Origin: Devosia marina
GTDB taxonomy: Bacteria > Pseudomonadota > Alphaproteobacteria > Rhizobiales > Devosiaceae
Direction: 5' to 3'
Assembly (NCBI RefSeq): GCF_009758415.1
Contig: NZ_WQRF01000001.1
Location: 1,302,001-1,366,000, forward strand
DNA: 64,000 nucleotides
Shown: positions 6,119 through 14,348 of the stretch, piece by piece
How positions within the stretch are numbered: the stretch's first letter is position 1
How the letters are laid out: each line of letters starts with the position of its first letter
The notes under the pieces: generated by a model
The model's input: the letters and a program-made list of their open reading frames with translations, nothing else
Databases searched by the model: none
What the model was told of the DNA's origin: nothing
Made by a program: the position numbers and the translations under genes

Positions 6119-9100
6119 ATGGCGAAAAATCCGACACCCCAGAACGATCCGGCCGCATTGGCCTTCTCGGCCGTCGAGGATGCCCTGAAGGACTCCGTGT
6201 TCAATCTGGATCCGCCGGCCCAGCCCGCTCAGGAAAAAAAGCCCGAAAAGAAGCCCGACCCGGCGCGCTCCGAGCGCCTGCGCGCCGCCGACCGCATTGC
6301 CCAGCAGGCCGGGACCGTGGCCAATGACGACCGCGTCTCCGCCTCCAAGCTTCTCTACAACCTGCAGAGCCGGTCCTCGGCCACCCCGACCTGGCTGGCC
6401 CTGCTGCTATCGGTGCTCTGGATCGCCGCTGTTGCGACCGTCGCCTGGCTGCGCTTCGGCACGCAGATGCTCGATTTCGGCACCTTTGCCAGCACCATAG
6501 AATTTGTCGCCACCCTGGCCATCATGGTCGTGCCTGTTCTGGGCTTTTTTGCCGTGGCGACCCTGTTCCGCCGCGCCGCCGATCTGCGAAACGCCGCCTC
6601 CTCCATTACCCAGGCGGCCATTCGCCTGGCAGAACCGGAGGTGACCGCTGCCGACAAGGTCGCCTCGGTCGGTCAGGCCGTGCGCCGCGAAGTCAACGCG
6701 CTTGGCGATGGCCTGGAGCGCGCCCTGTCGCGCGCCGGCGAGCTTGAAGTGATGATCCACAATGAGGTCACCGCGCTCGAACGCACCTATTCGGATAATG
6801 AGTCGCGCATGCGTGCGCTCATCGCCGAACTGGCCAGCCAGCGCGAAAGCGTTTTGACCAATACCGAGCGGGTCCGCGAAGCCATTACCGAGAGCCACAC
6901 CGGCCTCGTCTTCGACCTCGACATGATCAGCCAGCGCATCGCCGGCACCATCGTGGACAGCGGCGGCAATCTCACCCGCGCGCTCGAGACCGCGGGCAAC
7001 ACGCTGACCACCGGCTTCTCCGAACGTGCCGACGGCTTTGTTGCCCTGGTCGATAACCGCACGTCCGACTTCCTCGGCGCTCTCGACGAAAGCACTGGAC
7101 GCCTGTCGCTCGGCTTCGAAGACAATGCAGCTGCCATCGGCAAGTCACTTGACGAACGGGCCGCCGAGATCAATGCCGGCATTGAAAGCCGCATCAGCAA
7201 GCTCAGCCAGGCGCTGGACCAACATGCCGACAGCATTGCGCTGGCCATGGATTCGCGCACCCAGCAACTCGAGGAACGCACCCAGGCCCTGACAGGCACA
7301 TTCGAGGACCGGACCCGCGCCATCGCCGGCCTGATCGAAACGGGCACCGGCAACCTCTCGACGGCTCTGGACGAGCGCACCGCTGCACTCTCCAACCTCC
7401 TGACCGATGGCGGCACGTCGCTGCTCGATCAGCTCCGCACCCGCGGCGAGGAAGTCAGCGAGGCCCTGGCTTCGATTGGTGCCCGCGTCTCCGGCGACAT
7501 CAGCGGCCGCGCCACCGAGGCCGAGCTGCTCCTGGCCACTCTCACCCGCCAGCTCGATGAATCGGTGTCGATCCAGCTCAACGCGCTCGATAGCCGCCTG
7601 CAATCGGCCATCATCGAGATCAATGGCGCCTTGGACGACACCTCCGAGCGCGCGCGCGAAACCCTGTCCACGGCGGGCCAGGATTCGCTCAGCCTGTTCG
7701 ACACGCGCCTGACCGAAATCACCGGCCTGCTCGACGAAAAGCTCCACGCCCTCGACAATGTCATCGGCGACAAGGGCGAGAGCCTGGTGCAGCGCCTTGA
7801 CCAGCAGGGCGTCAATTTCGCCGCTCGCGCCAACGTTCTGGAAATGGCGCTCAACGAGGAATCGGGTCGTTTCAACGACATCGTCGCCGATCGCACCCGC
7901 GAAATGAGCGAAGTGATCGGCGCCAAGACCAAGGCCATCACCGAGACGTTGACCAACCGCACCCAGGAAATCTCTGACAGCCTGGACGGCCACGCCGAGA
8001 TTCTCACCGAAGCGCTCGACAGCCGCACCGGCAAGCTCGACGAAATGCTCTCGACCCGCACCATCGAGGTCAGCGACGCCATCATTGCGCGCACTGGCGA
8101 GCTCGAGCAGACCCTGGTCAGCCGCAGCGCCGAGGTCAACGAGGCCATCCGCCTGCGCTCCCAGGAACTGGGCGAGACACTCTCGACCGGCACCCAGGCC
8201 TTCGACAGGGCCATTGCTGGCCGCACCCAGCGCATGGCCGACACCCTTTCGGGGCAGACCGAACGCTTCGAGACCACGCTCAACCAGACCACCCAGATCC
8301 TGAGCGAAACCATCTCCGAGCGCACCAATGCGCTCTCGCTCGAGCTGGAAACCCGCACCGGCGACTTTGCCAACCAGATCGACGAGCGCACCGGCACTCT
8401 GGTATCCCGCCTGGACGAACGCACCAGCACCCTGACCTCCGAGCTCGACCAGCGCACCAGCGCCCTTGCCACCGAGCTCGACCAGCGGACCACCACGCTC
8501 ACCTCCGAACTCGATCAGCGCACGACAGCGCTCAATTCCGGCCTCGACGCCCGCACTGGTGCCTTCACCGCACAGCTCGACGAGCGTGCCGAAGGCCTCA
8601 TCTCGCGCCTCGACGAGCGCACCCAAGACATGGCCGGCGCGGTCAACACCCGCACCCAGCAGCTCTCCGATGCGCTTAACGCCCGCACCCAGGCGCTGTC
8701 CGACACCCTCTCGACCCACACCGCCTCTATTGGCGAAACCATTGGCCTGCATACCTCCGAACTGGCAGAAACCCTCGACCAGCATAGCGCCAAGGCCCGC
8801 GACAGCATTGATGGTTCGCTGCGCGAAGTCACCGCGACCATGGAAACCCGGCTCGACGACATGTCGGTCCGCGTTTCGGGCAAGGTTGCCGAGGTCAATG
8901 ACACCCTCGGCGCCGGGCTCGACAATGCCATTGCCCGTATTTCCGACGCCGAACAGGGCGTTGCCGCCCGCATCGAAAGCGCCAGCGAGACCGTGGGCGA
9001 AAGCGCCCGCCAGGCCGCCGAACTCATCGAATCCGGCGTCAGCTCGGCACGCAAGGCCGTTATCGAGATGGTCGACCAGCGCCTGGGCACCCTGCCCGAG

Positions 9101-11599
9101 GCGATCACCGCACGCGCCGATATCACGGCCGAGCGCCTGGCCGCGCTCAACGCTTCGATCAGCACCTCGATCACCCAGTCCATGGCCGATCTCGAAGCCG
9201 GCGCCGACCGCATCGAGGAAACCATCGCCACCCGCATCACCGCGGCCACCAGCACCATTTCGGCCGATGTCGAAAATACTGCCAACCGTATGGACTCTGC
9301 GGTGCGCAGCGCGCTCGAACAGATCCGCATGGCCGCCAGCAATATCGACCAGTTGGTGTCGGTAAAGGCCGTTGGCGCCGCCGACGCCATCGAAGGGCGC
9401 CTGACCACCATCAACCAGTCCGTCGAACAGCATACCAACGCCTTCGCGAACCTGGTCACCGAGAAATCCGCGCAACTGGAAACCGCCCTGGCCAGCCACG
9501 GCAATCTGCTGCGCGATGCCCTGGGCGAAAATGCCCGCGAGGCCGAAGAGATCATGTCGGTCTCCACCTCGCGCATTCTTAACGACGTCACCAGCGCACT
9601 CAACAAGCTCAACGACTCCAACCTGCTGTTGCAGCGCGTGCTGGACGCTTCCACCGCAAATCTGGCGAGCCTGGAAACCAGCGTCGCCCAGCAGACCGCG
9701 AACTATTCCAACACCATGCGCGAAGCCATGGGCCAGACCGAACAGGCCGGCACCATGGTCACCCAGCATGTCGGCGCCCTGCAGGCCACCATTGCCGGCA
9801 TGGTCGAGCAGTTCTCCACCATGCTTGGCCGTCTCGACGCCGAGGCCTCCGGCCTCACCCAGGCCGCCCAGACACTCGACGCCTCCAGCTCCAATGCGCT
9901 GGAAAATCTCGAGGATCGCCGCGGCGCCATGGATGCGCTGGCGCAGAGCTTTGCCGCCCGTGCCGACGATATCGATGGCCGCATGCGCCTGTTCGCCCAG
10001 TCCATTGCCGATACGGTCAACGATACCGAACGCCGCCTGATCGGCGCCCGCCGCGCCATGGACGAAGCTCTCAACGGCACCACCCATGCGGTCACCGACG
10101 CCCTGAGCCAGACCACGGCCACCGTCACCCAGGCGCTTGAGCAGAACGCCAACAGCGTCACCGATGCGCTCTATGCCAATAATGAGCGCTTCTCGACCAC
10201 GCTGCAGAGCAATGTCTCGGAGATGGACAACGCTGTTCAGCGCGCCGCCGAAGCCGCTGCCGCCGCCCTCAACCAGACCTCGCAGTCGGTGCGCCTGGCG
10301 CTCAGCGAACAGTCCAGCCAGGTCAATTCGGCCCTCCAGGAAAATGCCGGCCGCGTCAATTCCGTCCTCGAGGACAATGCGGGCCGCGTAAACTCGGCTT
10401 TGGACGAGAATGCCAGCCGCGTCAGCGACGTGCTGTCCTCCACCGCCGGCAGCGTTACCGACGTTCTCACCTCCACCACCAGCACGCTGGCCGACACCAT
10501 CTCGGATTCGACCAGCTCGGTGCGCAACGCCATTGCGTCCAACACCGGCCAGCTGCGCCGCGCACTGGATGAAACCACCGGCGAAGTTACCGGCAAGCTG
10601 GGCGAGTTCCACGAAGTGGCCGACAGCGAAGGCCGCCGCGCCAACCAGGCCCTTCAGGAAGCCCAGCAGCGCATGGTCACCGAAATGCAGCGCGCCATCG
10701 AAGAAGCCACCCAGCGCTTTGCCGACACCGCCCGCGCCATGCGCGAAACGGCCCGCGAAGTGGGCACCGAGCTCGAATCCACCCGCGCCGAGCTGGCCCG
10801 TGGCGTCAACGAGCTGCCCGAGGAAACCCGTGCCAGCGCCGCCGCCATGCGCCGCGTCGTGGCCGAGCAGATCGAGGCCCTCTCCGAGCTCAACGCCATC
10901 GTGCGCAGCCAGCCGGCCAGCCACGACCTGACCGACCGTCGCGCCAGCCAGCGGCCCCCGCGTGCGCCTGAGCCCCCGGCCTATCAGCCGCCGCCGCGCC
11001 AGCCCGAGCCGCCGCGTGAGACCTATCGCGCCGAGGCCCCGCGCCAGACACTGGTCGATCCGATCCGCCCGGCCGCTATTGTCTCGCAGCCCGCCCCGGC
11101 CCCGGCCCCGGCACCCGCCGCCCCCGCACCCGCACCGCAGCAGGCGGCACCTGCCCCTACCCAGGCGCCCGCGCCTCGCCAGGCCACCGAAGCCGAAGGC
11201 GGCGGCTGGCTGCGCGACGTGCTGCGCAACGCCTCGGCCAAGCAGGCCGGCGGTTCCGCCCCGCAGGCCCTGTCCGGCCTCAGCGAGGAAATCGCCCGCG
11301 CCATCGACGATGCGGCCCTGGGCGAAGCCTGGGCCCGCTACCAGGCCGGCGAAAGCAATGTGTTCACCCGGCGCATCTATACGCTCACCGGCCAGGGCAC
11401 CTATGACGAAGTCCGCAAGCGCATCCAGCGCGACGCCGACTTCGCCAGGACCGCACAGGCCTATATGAGCGAGTTCGAACAGCTCCTCAAACGCGCCGCT
11501 GCCGGCCCCAACCCCGCCGCCGAAACCCGCGAATATCTGCTCTCGGACAAGGGCAAGGTCTACACCACCCTCGCCCACGCCAGCGGCCGCCTCGGCTGA
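6119..11599 (+). CDS. gpr: Giant apolipoprotein-like coiled-coil protein, growth pole ring (GPR/RgsE) family
   Basis: 1,826 residues. Order: a polar N-terminus rich in Pro, Lys and Glu (1-80); two membrane helices (about 91-112 and 124-150) forming an inner-membrane hairpin; then about 1,400 residues of almost unbroken alpha-helix made of 11-residue repeats of the form LDxRTxxLxxx; a Pro/Ala-rich flexible linker (about 1605-1690); and a compact C-terminal domain of about 110 residues (from about 1715, ALSGLSEEIARAIDD). The size, twin membrane helices, apolipoprotein-like body and Pro-rich tail match the growth pole ring protein of Agrobacterium and RgsE of Sinorhizobium, which organise polar growth at the new pole. 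Identification rests on architecture rather than alignment. The ribosome-binding site is weak. A strong terminator follows. Confidence 0.82.
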   Translation: MAKNPTPQNDPAALAFSAVEDALKDSVFNLDPPAQPAQEKKPEKKPDPARSERLRAADRIAQQAGTVANDDRVSASKLLYNLQSRSSATPTWLALLLSVLWIAAVATVAWLRFGTQMLDFGTFASTIEFVATLAIMVVPVLGFFAVATLFRRAADLRNAASSITQAAIRLAEPEVTAADKVASVGQAVRREVNALGDGLERALSRAGELEVMIHNEVTALERTYSDNESRMRALIAELASQRESVLTNTERVREAITESHTGLVFDLDMISQRIAGTIVDSGGNLTRALETAGNTLTTGFSERADGFVALVDNRTSDFLGALDESTGRLSLGFEDNAAAIGKSLDERAAEINAGIESRISKLSQALDQHADSIALAMDSRTQQLEERTQALTGTFEDRTRAIAGLIETGTGNLSTALDERTAALSNLLTDGGTSLLDQLRTRGEEVSEALASIGARVSGDISGRATEAELLLATLTRQLDESVSIQLNALDSRLQSAIIEINGALDDTSERARETLSTAGQDSLSLFDTRLTEITGLLDEKLHALDNVIGDKGESLVQRLDQQGVNFAARANVLEMALNEESGRFNDIVADRTREMSEVIGAKTKAITETLTNRTQEISDSLDGHAEILTEALDSRTGKLDEMLSTRTIEVSDAIIARTGELEQTLVSRSAEVNEAIRLRSQELGETLSTGTQAFDRAIAGRTQRMADTLSGQTERFETTLNQTTQILSETISERTNALSLELETRTGDFANQIDERTGTLVSRLDERTSTLTSELDQRTSALATELDQRTTTLTSELDQRTTALNSGLDARTGAFTAQLDERAEGLISRLDERTQDMAGAVNTRTQQLSDALNARTQALSDTLSTHTASIGETIGLHTSELAETLDQHSAKARDSIDGSLREVTATMETRLDDMSVRVSGKVAEVNDTLGAGLDNAIARISDAEQGVAARIESASETVGESARQAAELIESGVSSARKAVIEMVDQRLGTLPEAITARADITAERLAALNASISTSITQSMADLEAGADRIEETIATRITAATSTISADVENTANRMDSAVRSALEQIRMAASNIDQLVSVKAVGAADAIEGRLTTINQSVEQHTNAFANLVTEKSAQLETALASHGNLLRDALGENAREAEEIMSVSTSRILNDVTSALNKLNDSNLLLQRVLDASTANLASLETSVAQQTANYSNTMREAMGQTEQAGTMVTQHVGALQATIAGMVEQFSTMLGRLDAEASGLTQAAQTLDASSSNALENLEDRRGAMDALAQSFAARADDIDGRMRLFAQSIADTVNDTERRLIGARRAMDEALNGTTHAVTDALSQTTATVTQALEQNANSVTDALYANNERFSTTLQSNVSEMDNAVQRAAEAAAAALNQTSQSVRLALSEQSSQVNSALQENAGRVNSVLEDNAGRVNSALDENASRVSDVLSSTAGSVTDVLTSTTSTLADTISDSTSSVRNAIASNTGQLRRALDETTGEVTGKLGEFHEVADSEGRRANQALQEAQQRMVTEMQRAIEEATQRFADTARAMRETAREVGTELESTRAELARGVNELPEETRASAAAMRRVVAEQIEALSELNAIVRSQPASHDLTDRRASQRPPRAPEPPAYQPPPRQPEPPRETYRAEAPRQTLVDPIRPAAIVSQPAPAPAPAPAAPAPAPQQAAPAPTQAPAPRQATEAEGGGWLRDVLRNASAKQAGGSAPQALSGLSEEIARAIDDAALGEAWARYQAGESNVFTRRIYTLTGQGTYDEVRKRIQRDADFARTAQAYMSEFEQLLKRAAAGPNPAAETREYLLSDKGKVYTTLAHASGRLG
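8345..8806 (+). repeat. Fourteen tandem 33-bp (11-codon) units in the ring protein
   Basis: Residues about 743-896 read as fourteen consecutive hendecads, for example LDERTSTLTSE, LDQRTSALATE, LDQRTTTLTSE, LDQRTTALNSG. Leu/Ile occupies position 1, Arg-Thr positions 4-5 and a small or hydrophobic residue position 8. Eleven residues equal three helical turns, so one face stays apolar, as in apolipoproteins and right-handed coiled coils. Near-identity at DNA level between neighbouring units suggests growth by tandem duplication. Confidence 0.88.
10268..10597 (+). repeat. Ten tandem 11-codon units near the end of the helical body
   Basis: Residues about 1384-1493 form ten hendecads with a different consensus from the first array, for example LQENAGRVNSV, LEDNAGRVNSA, LDENASRVSDV, then Ser/Thr-rich units such as LTSTTSTLADT. 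The Arg-Thr pair of the first array is replaced by Asn-Ala/Ser-Arg, so the two arrays probably arose by separate local duplications. Confidence 0.82.
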
Positions 11600-11622
11600 G
11601 GCTGTTGAGAGCCAGGAAATGC

Positions 11623-11652
11623 AAAAGGCCCCGGAGCAATCCGGGGCCTTTT
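11623..11652 (+). terminator. Intrinsic terminator after the ring-protein gene
   Basis: A perfect 12-bp stem AAAAGGCCCCGG / CCGGGGCCTTTT with a 6-nt loop (AGCAAT) ends in TTTT, 24 bp after the stop. The symmetric A/T ends let it work in both directions. Confidence 0.92.
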
Positions 11653-11761
11653 GTTTGAATCAACGGTGCATGGCGCACTGTGCTGCCCTTGTTGCAGGAT
11701 TGCACACCCGGTCGGTCGCAGCGATGCTGCTCCCCCCATGAGCGTTGTGACCCTGAACCTC

Positions 11762-11777
11762 GTCAACAAGTGTTGAC
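11762..11777 (+). promoter_or_regulatory. Operator palindrome 1, GTCAAC-N4-GTTGAC
   Basis: GTCAACAAGTGTTGAC, a perfect 6-bp inverted repeat around 4 bp. Its right arm carries most of the -35 hexamer of the promoter that drives the HTH gene. The same arms recur 28 bp downstream. Confidence 0.75.
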
Positions 11778-11801
11778 AGCTTCATTGCCGTCAACTACAG
11801 T
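11773..11801 (+). promoter_or_regulatory. Sigma-70-type promoter giving an apparently leaderless transcript
   Basis: TTGACA (11773-11778), 17 bp, TACAGT (11796-11801). The -35 is perfect and the -10 matches TATAAT at four of six positions. The usual start point, about 7 nt after the -10, falls on the A of the HTH start codon (11808). There is no Shine-Dalgarno sequence before that codon, which fits a leaderless mRNA. Confidence 0.65.
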
Positions 11802-11805
11802 TGAC
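11790..11805 (+). promoter_or_regulatory. Operator palindrome 2, GTCAAC-N4-GTTGAC
   Basis: GTCAACTACAGTTGAC, with the same arms as the upstream palindrome. It covers the -10 element and ends 2 bp before the start codon. A dimer bound here would block RNA polymerase directly, so repression, probably by the HTH protein itself, is the simple reading. Confidence 0.75.
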
Positions 11806-11807
11806 AC

Positions 11808-12026
11808 ATGATCGACCTCCGCAACATCCAAACCCCCGACGACCCCGACGAAGCACTGGCTGCCGTGGTGGCACTGCGCCACTTGGCGGACCGCATGGAA
11901 GAAACGGCTGTAGGGACCGCCCTCGATGCAGGGTGGTCCTGGTCAAGGATCGCCCAGGCGCTCGGCGTCAGCAAGCAGGCCGCACACAAGCGTCTTTCGC
12001 ACCTCACCCGTCAAAACCCGACCTGA
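11808..12026 (+). CDS. Small helix-turn-helix protein of a Clp-N module
   Basis: 72 residues. The C-terminal half is a textbook helix-turn-helix (GWSWSRIAQALGVSKQAAHKR, about residues 45-65); the first half is helical (EALAAVVALRHLADRMEE) and could dimerise. The start codon lies 2 bp after an operator-like palindrome and at the expected transcription start, without a ribosome-binding site. The Clp-N gene follows 12 bp later with its own GAGG site. Small HTH proteins paired with stand-alone Clp-N-domain proteins occur in other bacteria, notably actinobacteria, as I recall. Autoregulation of the pair is inferred from the twin operators. Confidence 0.82.
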   Translation: MIDLRNIQTPDDPDEALAAVVALRHLADRMEETAVGTALDAGWSWSRIAQALGVSKQAAHKRLSHLTRQNPT

Positions 12027-12038
12027 AGAGGCAATACA

Positions 12039-12557
12039 ATGTTCAACGCCATCAAGTCCAAGCTTCGCGACATGGGCACGATAAAGCAGCTTTGCGAACG
12101 CGCAGAGAAACACGCACTGCATGACCGGCAGCCGGAACCGGGCGCCGAGCATTTTCTCCTCGCGGCGCTGGAGATGGAGGACGGCACGGCGCGACGCGCC
12201 TTTCAGGCAGCCGGAATGGATCCCGATGGCCTGAAGGCCGCTATCGCCCAGCAATACGTCGCCGCATTGGAATCAATCGGGCTGGCCGTTGAGCCGACTG
12301 CCGACCACCACGACGCCGTGGCCAGGCCTCCAGCGCCGGGTGCTTACCATGCAGCACCATCCGGGCAGGACGTCATGCAGGCATTGGCAGACTCTCGCAA
12401 CCAGCATGCCCCTCTTCTTGGTGCCCATGTCGTAGCCGTCGTGGCGGCCATGCCTCATGGGATTGCAGCCCGTGCGCTTCGCGGCATGGGCTCAGATCCC
12501 GTCCTGCTGCGCACGATGGCCGAGGAGGTGGCCGCAAGCTACTCGCCGGCCACGTGA
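12039..12557 (+). CDS. Stand-alone Clp N-terminal (R) domain protein
   Basis: 172 residues with two degenerate copies of the Clp-N repeat: GAEHFLLAALEMEDGTARRA (about residues 36-55) and LLGAHVVAVVAAMPHGIAAR (about 125-144), separated by a His/Pro/Ala linker. In ClpA, ClpB and ClpC this domain docks substrates and adaptors, but no AAA+ ATPase module follows here. The protein could compete for adaptors, sense misfolded protein, or regulate the HTH partner encoded just upstream; none of these is shown. GAGG sits 8 nt before the ATG. The flanks (terminator on the left, repeat-rich gap on the right) mark the pair as an accessory insert between core genes. Confidence 0.8.
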   Translation: MFNAIKSKLRDMGTIKQLCERAEKHALHDRQPEPGAEHFLLAALEMEDGTARRAFQAAGMDPDGLKAAIAQQYVAALESIGLAVEPTADHHDAVARPPAPGAYHAAPSGQDVMQALADSRNQHAPLLGAHVVAVVAAMPHGIAARALRGMGSDPVLLRTMAEEVAASYSPAT

Positions 12558-12936
12558 CCGGTGCCTGCTGTTCGACGTGGTGATCTCTGTCGCCACGGCC
12601 TTCAATGGCCCCACTCTGGCTTGCAGGACCGGACCACCGGCGGGAACGCCCCTACCGCTTCCTCGCCGCGATGCCCAACCCATTGCGCTGGCAGGCAATA
12701 CAGAGCCTCGCCGATCACCGCATTCTCTGGCACGCTGGCCGCAATAACCTCCGCACCACCCCTCCCCCTATCAGGGGGTGGCTGGGTGGGGGCATCCCCT
12801 TCAAAGAGCGCCTGCCAAAGCAAAAAGTAATCCCCGCGCCCAAAACCTCCCCCATAATCCCAGTCATCACTCCCGCGCGGACGGACTGCAGCGAACTTTT
12901 GCGGGGGGAGCCGGTTGGGCTCTGGGTCGCTCCAGG
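12558..12936. other. Gene-free region with a short GC palindrome
   Basis: No credible gene. It holds the hairpin CCCCCT-ATC-AGGGGG at 12764-12778, flanked by CCACCCC and GGGTGGGG. Similar short C-tract/G-tract palindromes recur at 17647-17660 and 32069-32087. Reading frames on both strands here are mutual shadows. Confidence 0.5.
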
Positions 12937-13107
12937 GCCTGCCTGCTCGTTGGGTCACCTTGCGACGAGCGATCAATAGGGGCCACGACAGCAGGAGAAA
13001 CCCGGTGTTCCGAGGCGGCGACGTCTCTATTACTTAGTTTTACCGAGACGCACGTGCCTCGGAACACGTCCACTGCACAACCGGAGGCCACTAGGGCCAG
13101 CTGGCGT
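12937..13107 (+). repeat. Dispersed intergenic repeat, copy A
   Basis: About 170 bp that recurs in inverted orientation at 37131-37374. Shared blocks are GGTCACCTTGCGACGAGCGA followed by TCAATAGG; GCAGGAGAAACCCG; GGCGACGTCTCTATT; and GCCTCGGAACACGTCC. In this copy GTGTTCCGAGGC (13005-13016) and GCCTCGGAACAC (13056-13067) form a perfect 12-bp stem, with an inner GTCTC/GAGAC stem. Edges are approximate. Confidence 0.72.
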
Positions 13108-13148
13108 ACATTCACGGCCTGAGCAATGGAAACGCCGTGACAAACGCC

Positions 13149-14348
13149 CTACCCCACCAGCGATTTCGGTGGCCGCATCTTGAGCGACCACAGCACGCAG
13201 CCGATCGCCAGCGACGAGGTCACCGTCGAATAGAAGAAAGCATAGGCACCGAAGAACTCGACCAGCACGCCGAACACGGTTAGCGCCAGCATGGCCATGG
13301 CCATGTTGAGCATGTTGAAAAAGCCCTGCGCCTCTGCCGCATTGGCCTCATTGGTCCAGTTGGCAATGAAGTGCACCACCCCGAAATAGCCCATGCCAAA
13401 GCTGAATGCGTGCAGCGACTGGGTGAGGAACAGCACCTCCACCGGCGGATTGAACGCCATGATGGTGAAGCGGATCAGCCCGGCAACGGCCCCGGCAAGG
13501 ATCATGTTACGTGCCGTCACCCGGCCACCAAAGCGCCGCCAGACAAACATCAGCACCGCTTCACCGACGGCTGCAAAGCCGAGCAATGGGCCCAGGAAGT
13601 AGCTCGGAATACCGTTTTCGTGCCAGAGCAACGCCCCGAACCCGCCAATCACGGCATTGGACGAGTTGACCAGCGCAAAGGCCAGCAGCGGCAGCACGAA
13701 CCAGGGCTGCAGCGCATCCTTGAGCCGGCTGGGTGGCGCCACCGCTTCAGGCGCCGCACCGGCCAGGGTCACCTGCGGTTTCGGGGCCCGGAACCGCGGC
13801 AGCAGGAACGCCAGCCCGGCCCGTGCGACGACCATGGCCACATAGAGCGTGATGAATGCACCCGAGCCGAGGACGTTGAGAAACAGCCCGATACCGCCCG
13901 CGCCCACGACATAGCCCACCGTCGCCCAGGCCCGGATGACACCGAAATCAGTGCCGTTGCGGCGTGTCATGCGCACTGTCGCGGCATCGATCACCGGCGC
14001 GACCAGGCCATTGCTGGAGGCGCACAGTCCCCAGACCAGCAAAATGCCCCAGAACTCGGAGACGAAATACATCGGTATCGCCGTCAACGCCGAAACAATG
14101 GAAATGCCGATCAGCGCCGTCCGCCAGTCATCGGCCCGGTCGGCAACGCGGCCGACGATCATGTTGAGGCCCAGCAGAAGCAGTGTCGGCAGCGCATTGA
14201 TCAGGCCGATCTGGTCGGCCGGAATGCCATGTTCGCTCAGCCAGATGCCCAGGAACACCGACGCGACGCCGCCCGGCAGATAGACGGTAAACTGATAAAT
14301 GGAAGCGCGCAGCTCGGGCGAATCCCAGCGCGAAAAGGCCGATGGCAT
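13149..14348 (-). CDS. MFS transporter, HcaT/MFS_1-like
   Basis: 399 residues with about twelve membrane helices and the loop motif GRVADRADDWR between helices 2 and 3. The best resemblance is to the MFS_1-like / 3-phenylpropionate (HcaT) transporter group (MGYFGVVHFIANWTNEANAA); the substrate is unknown. The first hydrophobic segment begins ASIYQFTVYLPGGVASVFLG. I chose the ATG at 14348, preceded by GGAG, over an earlier in-frame codon at 14432 that would add a basic, non-membrane stretch. It lies 115 bp downstream of the glycosyltransferase on the same strand. Confidence 0.88.
   Translation of the reverse strand: MPSAFSRWDSPELRASIYQFTVYLPGGVASVFLGIWLSEHGIPADQIGLINALPTLLLLGLNMIVGRVADRADDWRTALIGISIVSALTAIPMYFVSEFWGILLVWGLCASSNGLVAPVIDAATVRMTRRNGTDFGVIRAWATVGYVVGAGGIGLFLNVLGSGAFITLYVAMVVARAGLAFLLPRFRAPKPQVTLAGAAPEAVAPPSRLKDALQPWFVLPLLAFALVNSSNAVIGGFGALLWHENGIPSYFLGPLLGFAAVGEAVLMFVWRRFGGRVTARNMILAGAVAGLIRFTIMAFNPPVEVLFLTQSLHAFSFGMGYFGVVHFIANWTNEANAAEAQGFFNMLNMAMAMLALTVFGVLVEFFGAYAFFYSTVTSSLAIGCVLWSLKMRPPKSLVG

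What the first reader, a model, noticed from the sequence alone, without database searches (positions are those of the whole stretch)
11762..12557. Leaderless, doubly-operated HTH + Clp-N module
Seen: TTGACA-N17-TACAGT with the expected start point on the A of the HTH gene's ATG, no Shine-Dalgarno, and two perfect GTCAAC-N4-GTTGAC palindromes, one over the -35 and one over the -10 and start. The second gene encodes Clp-N repeats without an ATPase. Known: Clp-N domains bind substrates and adaptors of Clp unfoldases. Inference: a small self-regulated switch in which the Clp-N protein senses misfolded or adaptor-bound protein and adjusts the HTH repressor, or feeds it to ClpC/ClpA. It sits as an accessory insert between core genes.
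Basis: partly seen in the sequence, partly recalled or inferred. Interest (0 to 1): 0.72.

Follow-up and report, generated by a model that had tools for sequence, protein, structure and literature searches.

The report
Split ClpC2-type self-regulating decoy operon
Two small bacterial genes, a DNA-binding switch protein and a free-standing protease-chaperone "bait" domain, sit behind a promoter that the switch protein very probably shuts off itself; the pair is a two-piece relative of the mycobacterial antibiotic-sponge protein ClpC2, and its relatives show which part of such proteins reads the DNA.

Summary
In detail: two GTCAAC-N4-GTTGAC palindromes, TTGACA-N17-TACAGT and a leaderless-type ATG. 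Pair and double operator are conserved: in 9 of 136 family genomes, adjacent in 9 of 9.

It is a split relative of mycobacterial ClpC2, a published self-repressor and cyclomarin sponge with doubled GTCAAC-n5-GTTGAC operators and a probably leaderless start (PMC10030653). Here HTH and Clp_N are separate proteins, the spacer is N4, the host has ClpA and ClpB as its only other Clp_N proteins, and two of three cyclomarin-contact residues are not conserved.

New here: HTH recognition-helix residues covary with operator bases, so the HTH is the DNA reader. The ClpC2 paper put DNA binding on the Clp_N domain; its two crystal structures lack residues 73-93, where the recognition helix falls. In 9 pair-bearing genomes 16 of 17 perfect operator sites lie at the pair, so Clp_N itself is probably the output. 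Its ligand is unknown.

The parts
11762..11777 (.). distal operator GTCAAC-N4-GTTGAC; its right arm overlaps the -35
   Evidence: two operators 27-28 bp apart in 9 of 9 pair-bearing genomes of the genus (both perfect in 7 of 9)
11790..11805 (.). proximal operator GTCAAC-N4-GTTGAC; covers the -10, ends 2 nt before the ATG
11773..11778 (+). -35 TTGACA
11796..11801 (+). -10 TACAGT, 17 nt from the -35
11808..12026 (+). hth: 72-aa helix-turn-helix protein, presumed autorepressor, leaderless-type start
11970..11993 (+). recognition helix SKQAAHKR (residues 55-62); positions 2, 4 and 7 covary with operator bases 1, 5 and 6 across the family
12027..12031 (+). AGAGG, plausible ribosome-binding site of the second gene
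12039..12557 (+). clpN: 172-aa free-standing double-repeat Clp_N protein without ATPase, presumed ligand binder and sponge

Best explanation
The locus is a two-gene, self-limiting ligand trap of the ClpC2 kind, split over two polypeptides. The 72-aa HTH protein binds as a dimer to both GTCAAC-N4-GTTGAC palindromes, covers -35, -10 and start, and holds its own leaderless transcript off. The Clp_N protein is a free bait copy of an unfoldase N-domain. When a compound or protein that docks on Clp N-domains enters the cell, Clp_N binds it, the Clp_N/HTH interplay changes, repression is lifted, and the only product made in bulk is more HTH and Clp_N, which soaks up the ligand and spares the cell's own Clp unfoldase (here ClpA or ClpB). 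Shown by sequence: pair, promoter, double operator, leaderless spacing, conservation, HTH-operator covariation, absence of other perfect sites. Inferred from ClpC2: autorepression, ligand relief, sponge role. Unknown: the ligand, and how Clp_N passes the signal to a separate HTH protein (a contact is suggested by their fusion in ClpC2).
For: Conserved adjacency and operators: 9 of 9 strong carriers in the family. Search by operator alone: 100 of 119 stretches have the HTH gene beside it, 93 of these 100 with a start codon 2-4 nt after the operator, 72 with a separate Clp_N gene, 0 fused. Helix-operator covariation: position 2 K/R with base-1 G in 70 of 71 loci, A/P with base-1 A in 6 of 6; position 4 S with base-5 G in 3 of 3, A with base-5 A in 73 of 74; position 7 K/R with base-6 C in 69 of 70, other residues with non-C in 7 of 7. 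Dedicated operator: 16 of 17 perfect sites in 9 pair-bearing genomes lie at the pair. HTH profile matches the N-terminal fragment of ClpC2 (8ada, E 0.0056; E 0.076 with the same-genus profile); the broad Clp_N profile matches ClpC N-domains and ClpC2 (8ad9, E 5e-22). A fused ClpC2-type gene in Pseudonocardia carries the same helix start and half-sites. Published behaviour of ClpC2: PMC10030653.
Against: No binding, expression or ligand experiment exists for this pair. The proteobacterial Clp_N proteins have lost the F80- and E89-like contact residues and match solved ClpC N-domains only weakly on their own (best E 0.0015), so ligand and even ligand binding may differ. The host has no ClpC. The HTH profile match to ClpC2 is weak. 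Covariation rests on few independent changes (parsimony 3, 2 and 5); the sign tests on well-supported branches are not significant (median p 1, 0.5, 0.125). The arginine mutant R185A/R189A in the ClpC2 Clp_N domain does weaken DNA binding (PMC10030653), so Clp_N may also touch DNA.
Confidence: 0.5

Rival explanations
1. Proteostasis sensor (near the first reader's idea): Clp_N binds unfolded proteins or Clp adaptors; under protein stress it is titrated off the HTH protein, the operon is derepressed and Clp_N acts as a holdase or competes for Clp substrates.
For: Clp_N fold without ATPase. ClpC2 mRNA rises about twofold on heat and a holdase role is suggested (PMC10030653, passages and discussion).
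Against: Very patchy presence (9 of 136 family genomes; 3 strong matches of 199 in the Ensifer family) is odd for a general stress function; the heat response of ClpC2 is small beside the ligand response.
Confidence: 0.2
2. Anti-phage or anti-toxin decoy: the ligand is a protein of a phage or rival bacterium that docks on ClpA or ClpB N-domains.
For: Patchy, apparently mobile distribution; a Rhodococcus fascians plasmid carries the pair between a XerD-type recombinase and an integrase. The ClpC2 paper itself mentions phage proteins that bind a ClpC N-domain.
Against: No PADLOC match for Clp_N; HTH only Csa3 at E 0.028. No phage record encodes a relative of the Pseudonocardia HTH (only that protein was searched).
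Confidence: 0.15
3. Proteolytic switch: Clp_N delivers the HTH repressor to ClpAP, so that the operon reports Clp capacity.
For: Clp N-domains are docking sites (established knowledge); the two proteins are encoded together.
Against: In ClpC2 the two domains are one stable protein whose DNA binding is relieved by ligand; no evidence of HTH turnover was sought or found.
Confidence: 0.07
4. Toxin-antitoxin-like pair with the HTH protein as antitoxin.
For: The HTH profile matches the antitoxin RelI (9sdc, E 3e-9), which its authors relate to ClpC2 (PMC13284704, passages).
Against: The partner is a Clp_N domain with no catalytic part; deletion of fused clpC2 in M. smegmatis gave normal growth (PMC10030653).
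Confidence: 0.03

Closest known systems
ClpC2 of mycobacteria (Rv2667; PMC10030653)
   Same: Clp_N double repeat without ATPase; N-terminal domain related to the HTH protein; GTCAAC/GTTGAC half-sites; two operators over -35 and -10; start codon directly behind the proximal operator; presumed autorepression.
   Different: ClpC2 is one polypeptide, the window has two; operator spacer n5 (paper; also N5 in the fused Pseudonocardia gene L168) against N4; host is alphaproteobacterial without ClpC; F80- and E89-like contacts and the R185-like arginine are not conserved in the proteobacterial Clp_N rows.
Split HTH + Clp_N operons of Actinomycetota (72 of 119 stretches)
   Same: Same gene order, same N4 double operator, same start spacing.
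   Different: Actinobacterial Clp_N starts MFERFT and mostly keeps F80 (30 of 39 aligned rows have F). I found no paper on these split operons.
RelI antitoxin of the RelSI system (9sdc; PMC13284704)
   Same: Related HTH protein (E 3e-9).
   Different: Partner is a RelE-like ribonuclease; its authors found no evidence that it binds DNA (passage).
N-domains of ClpC, ClpA and ClpB
   Same: Two-repeat helical fold; best fold match ClpC N-domain 2y1q, E 2e-4.
   Different: No AAA+ modules; free-standing; 15-22% identity in the fold search.

Membership tests
ClpC2 (self-repressing Clp_N sponge) | HTH-type N-terminal domain fused to Clp_N in one protein | tested here: not met
   Two ORFs, 11808-12026 and 12039-12557; split in 9 of 9 genus members
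ClpC2 (self-repressing Clp_N sponge) | Clp_N double repeat without ATPase | tested here: met
ClpC2 (self-repressing Clp_N sponge) | N-terminal domain homologous to the HTH protein | tested here: inconclusive
   8ada matched at E 0.0056 and 0.076: right place and register, weak score; a fused Pseudonocardia gene matches at E 7e-10 to 2e-9
ClpC2 (self-repressing Clp_N sponge) | GTCAAC/GTTGAC operator 1-2 nt upstream of the ORF, often doubled over -35 and -10 | tested here: met
   2 nt in the window
ClpC2 (self-repressing Clp_N sponge) | operator spacer of 5 nt | tested here: not met
   spacer is 4 nt
ClpC2 (self-repressing Clp_N sponge) | cyclomarin-contact residues F2, F80, E89 (ClpC1 numbering) | tested here: not met
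   F2 kept; F80 to A and E89 to Q in the window by alignment; alignment near a gap
ClpC2 (self-repressing Clp_N sponge) | a ClpC unfoldase in the same cell to protect | tested here: not met
   Clp_N over the cut-off only in ClpB, ClpA and the window gene; genome 99.7% complete
ClpC2 (self-repressing Clp_N sponge) | binds its own operator; relief by ligand; protects the cell | not testable with these tools
   needs gel shift, expression and growth assays
Type II toxin-antitoxin (RelSI-like) | partner gene is a toxin | tested here: not met
   partner is Clp_N only
Known anti-phage system | match to a described defence protein family | tested here: not met
   PADLOC: none for Clp_N, Csa3 at E 0.028 for HTH

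The most novel reading that the evidence does not exclude
Bacteria carry a large, horizontally spread family of two-gene bait operons in which an HTH repressor with a readable helix-to-operator code is gated by a separate Clp N-domain mimic. Each lineage's mimic is tuned to another Clp-directed toxin, and the proteobacterial branch answers an undiscovered class of natural products or phage proteins aimed at ClpA or ClpB. In this family, ClpC2 included, the DNA reader is the HTH and the Clp_N part is the sensor and sponge.
Probability: 0.35. Interest if true: 0.8.

Novelty: new variant of a known kind. Interest (0 to 1): 0.6.

Why it matters
It carries the ClpC2 principle (sense a Clp-directed poison by binding it, then make more binder) out of Actinomycetota into Proteobacteria, into a host without ClpC, which predicts unknown ligands aimed at ClpA or ClpB N-domains. 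Because nature split the protein, the DNA-reading and ligand-binding roles can be tested apart. The covariation argues that the sequence-specific reader of ClpC2-type proteins is the HTH whose recognition helix falls in the stretch absent from both published ClpC2 crystal structures; this changes how cyclomarin relief of repression should be modelled. The natural helix-operator variants give a ready set of test pairs.

Tried and rejected
Chance palindromes: rejected by the tandem search and by conservation. Regulon of other genes in the genus: not supported; the single extra perfect site among 9 carriers (G041) recurs in two genomes without the pair, in an ORF-like stretch I take, from recall, for a common rRNA-region reading. 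Reversed-pattern control: one hit each in 4 of 20 genomes, so about that many chance sites are expected. Only perfect sites were counted.

RNA element: no Rfam match in 11500-13300. PADLOC: nothing useful. Weak Clp_N hits G020 and G035 and weak HTH hit G019 were not counted as carriers. In the class sample 9 of 385 genomes besides the own one matched: 8 in frames of 866-959 aa, taken as ClpA/ClpB by size; G210 (299 aa) was not followed up.

Covariation set: 99 distinct HTH loci found by protein searches; 22 were not used (18 had no operator pair by my palindrome search, 4 no helix or a weak match). L234 was kept, where it makes two of the exceptions through a GC-rich palindrome that looks spurious, and left out; L212 fell out for lack of a Clp_N row. 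Exception L174: K at position 7 with base-6 T. In L175, L227 and L235 position 4 S comes together with a changed position 7, so bases 5 and 6 are confounded there. Second set (26 loci from 22 genomes chosen by me out of 204 for weaker HTH scores; slightly looser palindrome search): 13 gave no operator pair, one was a duplicate (L271), one had another helix (L294). Of the other 11: position 2 agrees in 10 (exception L290: R with base-1 A and an AGCAAC half-site); position 4 in 11 (L273 has T with base-5 G); position 7 in 9, with 2 ties (L288, L292).

The classification profiles were retrained on loci of the same scan; the profile from the nine same-genus proteins alone already found the HTH in 66 of the 80 loci tried. 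One search ended with an error in a last display step, after its counts were printed.

HTH fold search: no match at E <= 0.001; best a sigma region 4 chain (3hug, E 0.21). 8AD9 is not among the 50 rows shown for the Clp_N model. No viral contigs or metagenome scan was made; no complex of HTH and Clp_N was modelled.

Full report
Observation. The tandem arrangement does not occur in 100 shuffles, while single near-matches are at chance level. The HTH gene codes for 72 aa, the second gene for 172 aa with a Pfam Clp_N hit. AlphaFold2 models built on family alignments are confident: HTH helices 13-40, 45-52 and 56-66 (mean pLDDT 89.1), and a Clp_N protein of two four-helix repeats (89.3) whose best fold match is a ClpC N-domain (2y1q, E 2e-4).

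Conservation. In 136 genomes of the family, 9 including the own one have strong matches to both proteins, all in one genus, and the two genes are adjacent in 9 of 9. All nine have two operators 27 or 28 bp apart (both perfect in 7, the distal one with a single change in 2) and an ATG 2 nt (8 of 9) or 3 nt behind the proximal one. In six of the eight relatives the flank holds the end of the same ABC-transporter gene (L003-L007, L009; read), which is not the window's neighbourhood (a 1826-aa coiled protein upstream and an MFS transporter downstream). With weak matches set aside, the pair is absent from most of the family; in a sample of 385 genomes of the class no other free-standing copy was recognised, one 299-aa hit being unexplored, and 3 of 199 genomes of the Ensifer family have strong HTH matches. 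A same-genus contig (G058:C34) has the same length as the contig of a record titled Alphaproteobacteria bacterium (L052).

Search by operator alone. In 100 of 119 an HTH gene of this family lies next to it; in 93 of these 100 the start codon is 2-4 nt behind the operator; 72 of 119 have a separate Clp_N gene, none a fused one; 28 have the HTH without a recognised Clp_N gene (3 of them with under 300 nt of sequence left); 19 have no HTH (3 of them cut within 62 nt on one side). Most named records are Actinomycetota; Ensifer and Shinella appear (L040, L077). Protein searches found the HTH in 204 of 298 genomes of an order holding Pseudonocardia (E <= 1e-10) and in 215 and 196 of 394 genomes of its class with two different query proteins (E <= 1e-3). 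Agarilytica rhodophyticola plasmid pSU1, a gammaproteobacterial record, has the pair with both operators, one arm with a single change.

Tree. On HTH plus Clp_N without the recognition helix (120 rows, quick method), 17 proteobacterial rows (14 distinct genes, three entered twice) stand on one side of a branch with SH-aLRT 98. The window's nearest rows are Ensifer sp. LC11 and Shinella, not most members of its own genus. This fits transfer between lineages; the root is not inferred.

Who reads the DNA. In 77 loci found by protein search, with operator pairs located by a palindrome search blind to the motif, helix residues and half-site bases vary together. Writing the helix as positions 1-8 of SKQAAHKR and the half-site as G1 T2 C3 A4 A5 C6: K or R at position 2 goes with G1 (70 of 71), A or P with A1 (6 of 6); S at position 4 with G5 (3 of 3), A with A5 (73 of 74); K or R at position 7 with C6 (69 of 70), E, H, A or Q with another base (7 of 7). 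On the tree the residue traits need 3, 2 and 5 changes and the base traits the same numbers. Fisher tests give 6e-8, 1e-5 and 4e-9 but ignore relatedness; tests on independent pairs all point the same way or show no difference but are too few to be significant. A second set of 11 loci agrees for position 2 in 10, position 4 in 11 and position 7 in 9 with 2 ties; L290 is a clear exception. I take this as good evidence that the HTH makes the base contacts.

ClpC2. Taylor et al. 2023 (PMC10030653; I read abstract, introduction, results apart from section 12, discussion and passages, not methods or supplements) report that ClpC2 binds cyclomarin A, represses itself through CGTCAAC-n5-GTTGACG sites directly upstream of its ORF, often doubled over -35 and -10, and is probably leaderless. 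They assign DNA binding to the Clp_N (C-terminal) domain from a conserved, charged surface and an R185A/R189A mutant that binds less well; the N-terminal domain is described as the dimeriser. Their structures cover residues 4-72 (cut by proteolysis) and 94-252. My HTH profile aligns to 8ADA up to residue 72 at profile position 57, just before the recognition helix. In a fused Pseudonocardia ammonioxydans gene of 245 aa (L168) residue 72 is V, residues 73-81 are SKQAAQKRF, and D46 and R57, the published dimer salt bridge, are in place. So the recognition helix falls in the 73-93 gap of both structures. That gene has two GTCAAC-N5-GTTGAC sites and the same helix start, as the code predicts. The R185-like arginine is R in 32 of 39 aligned rows and A in the four proteobacterial rows, whose operators are unchanged. 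The published loss of binding by the Clp_N part alone fits loss of the HTH as well as loss of dimerisation. An HTH region in ClpC2 has been noted in print by the RelI authors (PMC13284704, passages). I found no paper on the split operons or on a helix-operator code in my searches.

What it does. In nine pair-bearing genomes 16 of 17 perfect operator sites lie at the pair, and 9 of 11 genomes without the pair have none. The repressor therefore seems to control only its own operon, and the Clp_N protein is the likely output. The genome's other Clp_N proteins are ClpB and ClpA. A trap for a molecule that docks on Clp N-domains is the best reading by analogy with ClpC2. Cyclomarin itself is unlikely as ligand, since F80 and E89 equivalents are A and Q in the window. 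How a separate Clp_N protein talks to the HTH protein is open; their fusion in ClpC2 suggests contact.

Wider family. The same HTH and operator stand before ABC exporters in Microbacteriaceae-type loci, and double operators without the HTH gene stand 2-4 nt before hydrolase, DUF998, beta-lactamase-fold and methyltransferase genes. This looks like a general xenobiotic-response circuit in which Clp_N is one possible output.

Noticed in passing
L035, L049 (also L029, L054, L074, L075, L100): The HTH gene with the same double operator is followed by an ABC exporter gene instead of Clp_N (Pfam run for L035 and L049 only; others by reading).
   Followed up: partly
L042, L061, L083, L095, L106: Double operators without the HTH gene lie 2-4 nt before genes for an alpha/beta hydrolase, DUF998 proteins, a beta-lactamase-fold protein and a methyltransferase: possible targets in trans.
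   Followed up: partly
L174, Rhodococcus fascians plasmid pGS01: The pair sits between a XerD-type recombinase and a site-specific integrase.
   Followed up: no
window 11808-12026: The HTH resembles sigma region 4 (SigL 3hug, E 6e-4 by the same-genus profile; fold E 0.21), and its half-site holds TTGAC, the core of the -35 element: it may descend from a -35 reader.
   Followed up: no
window 6119-11599: A 1826-aa ORF, strongly helical-repeat in type (Apolipoprotein family hit, E 1e-59), stands upstream.
   Followed up: no
L217-L230 (TRQAVHKK group): A sub-group of HTH genes has no palindromic operator pair by my search although the helix is of the usual type.
   Followed up: no
L290: AGCAAC half-sites with an R at position 2: exception to the code.
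   Followed up: no
G210 (L157): A 299-aa frame with a weak Clp_N profile match in another alphaproteobacterium.
   Followed up: no
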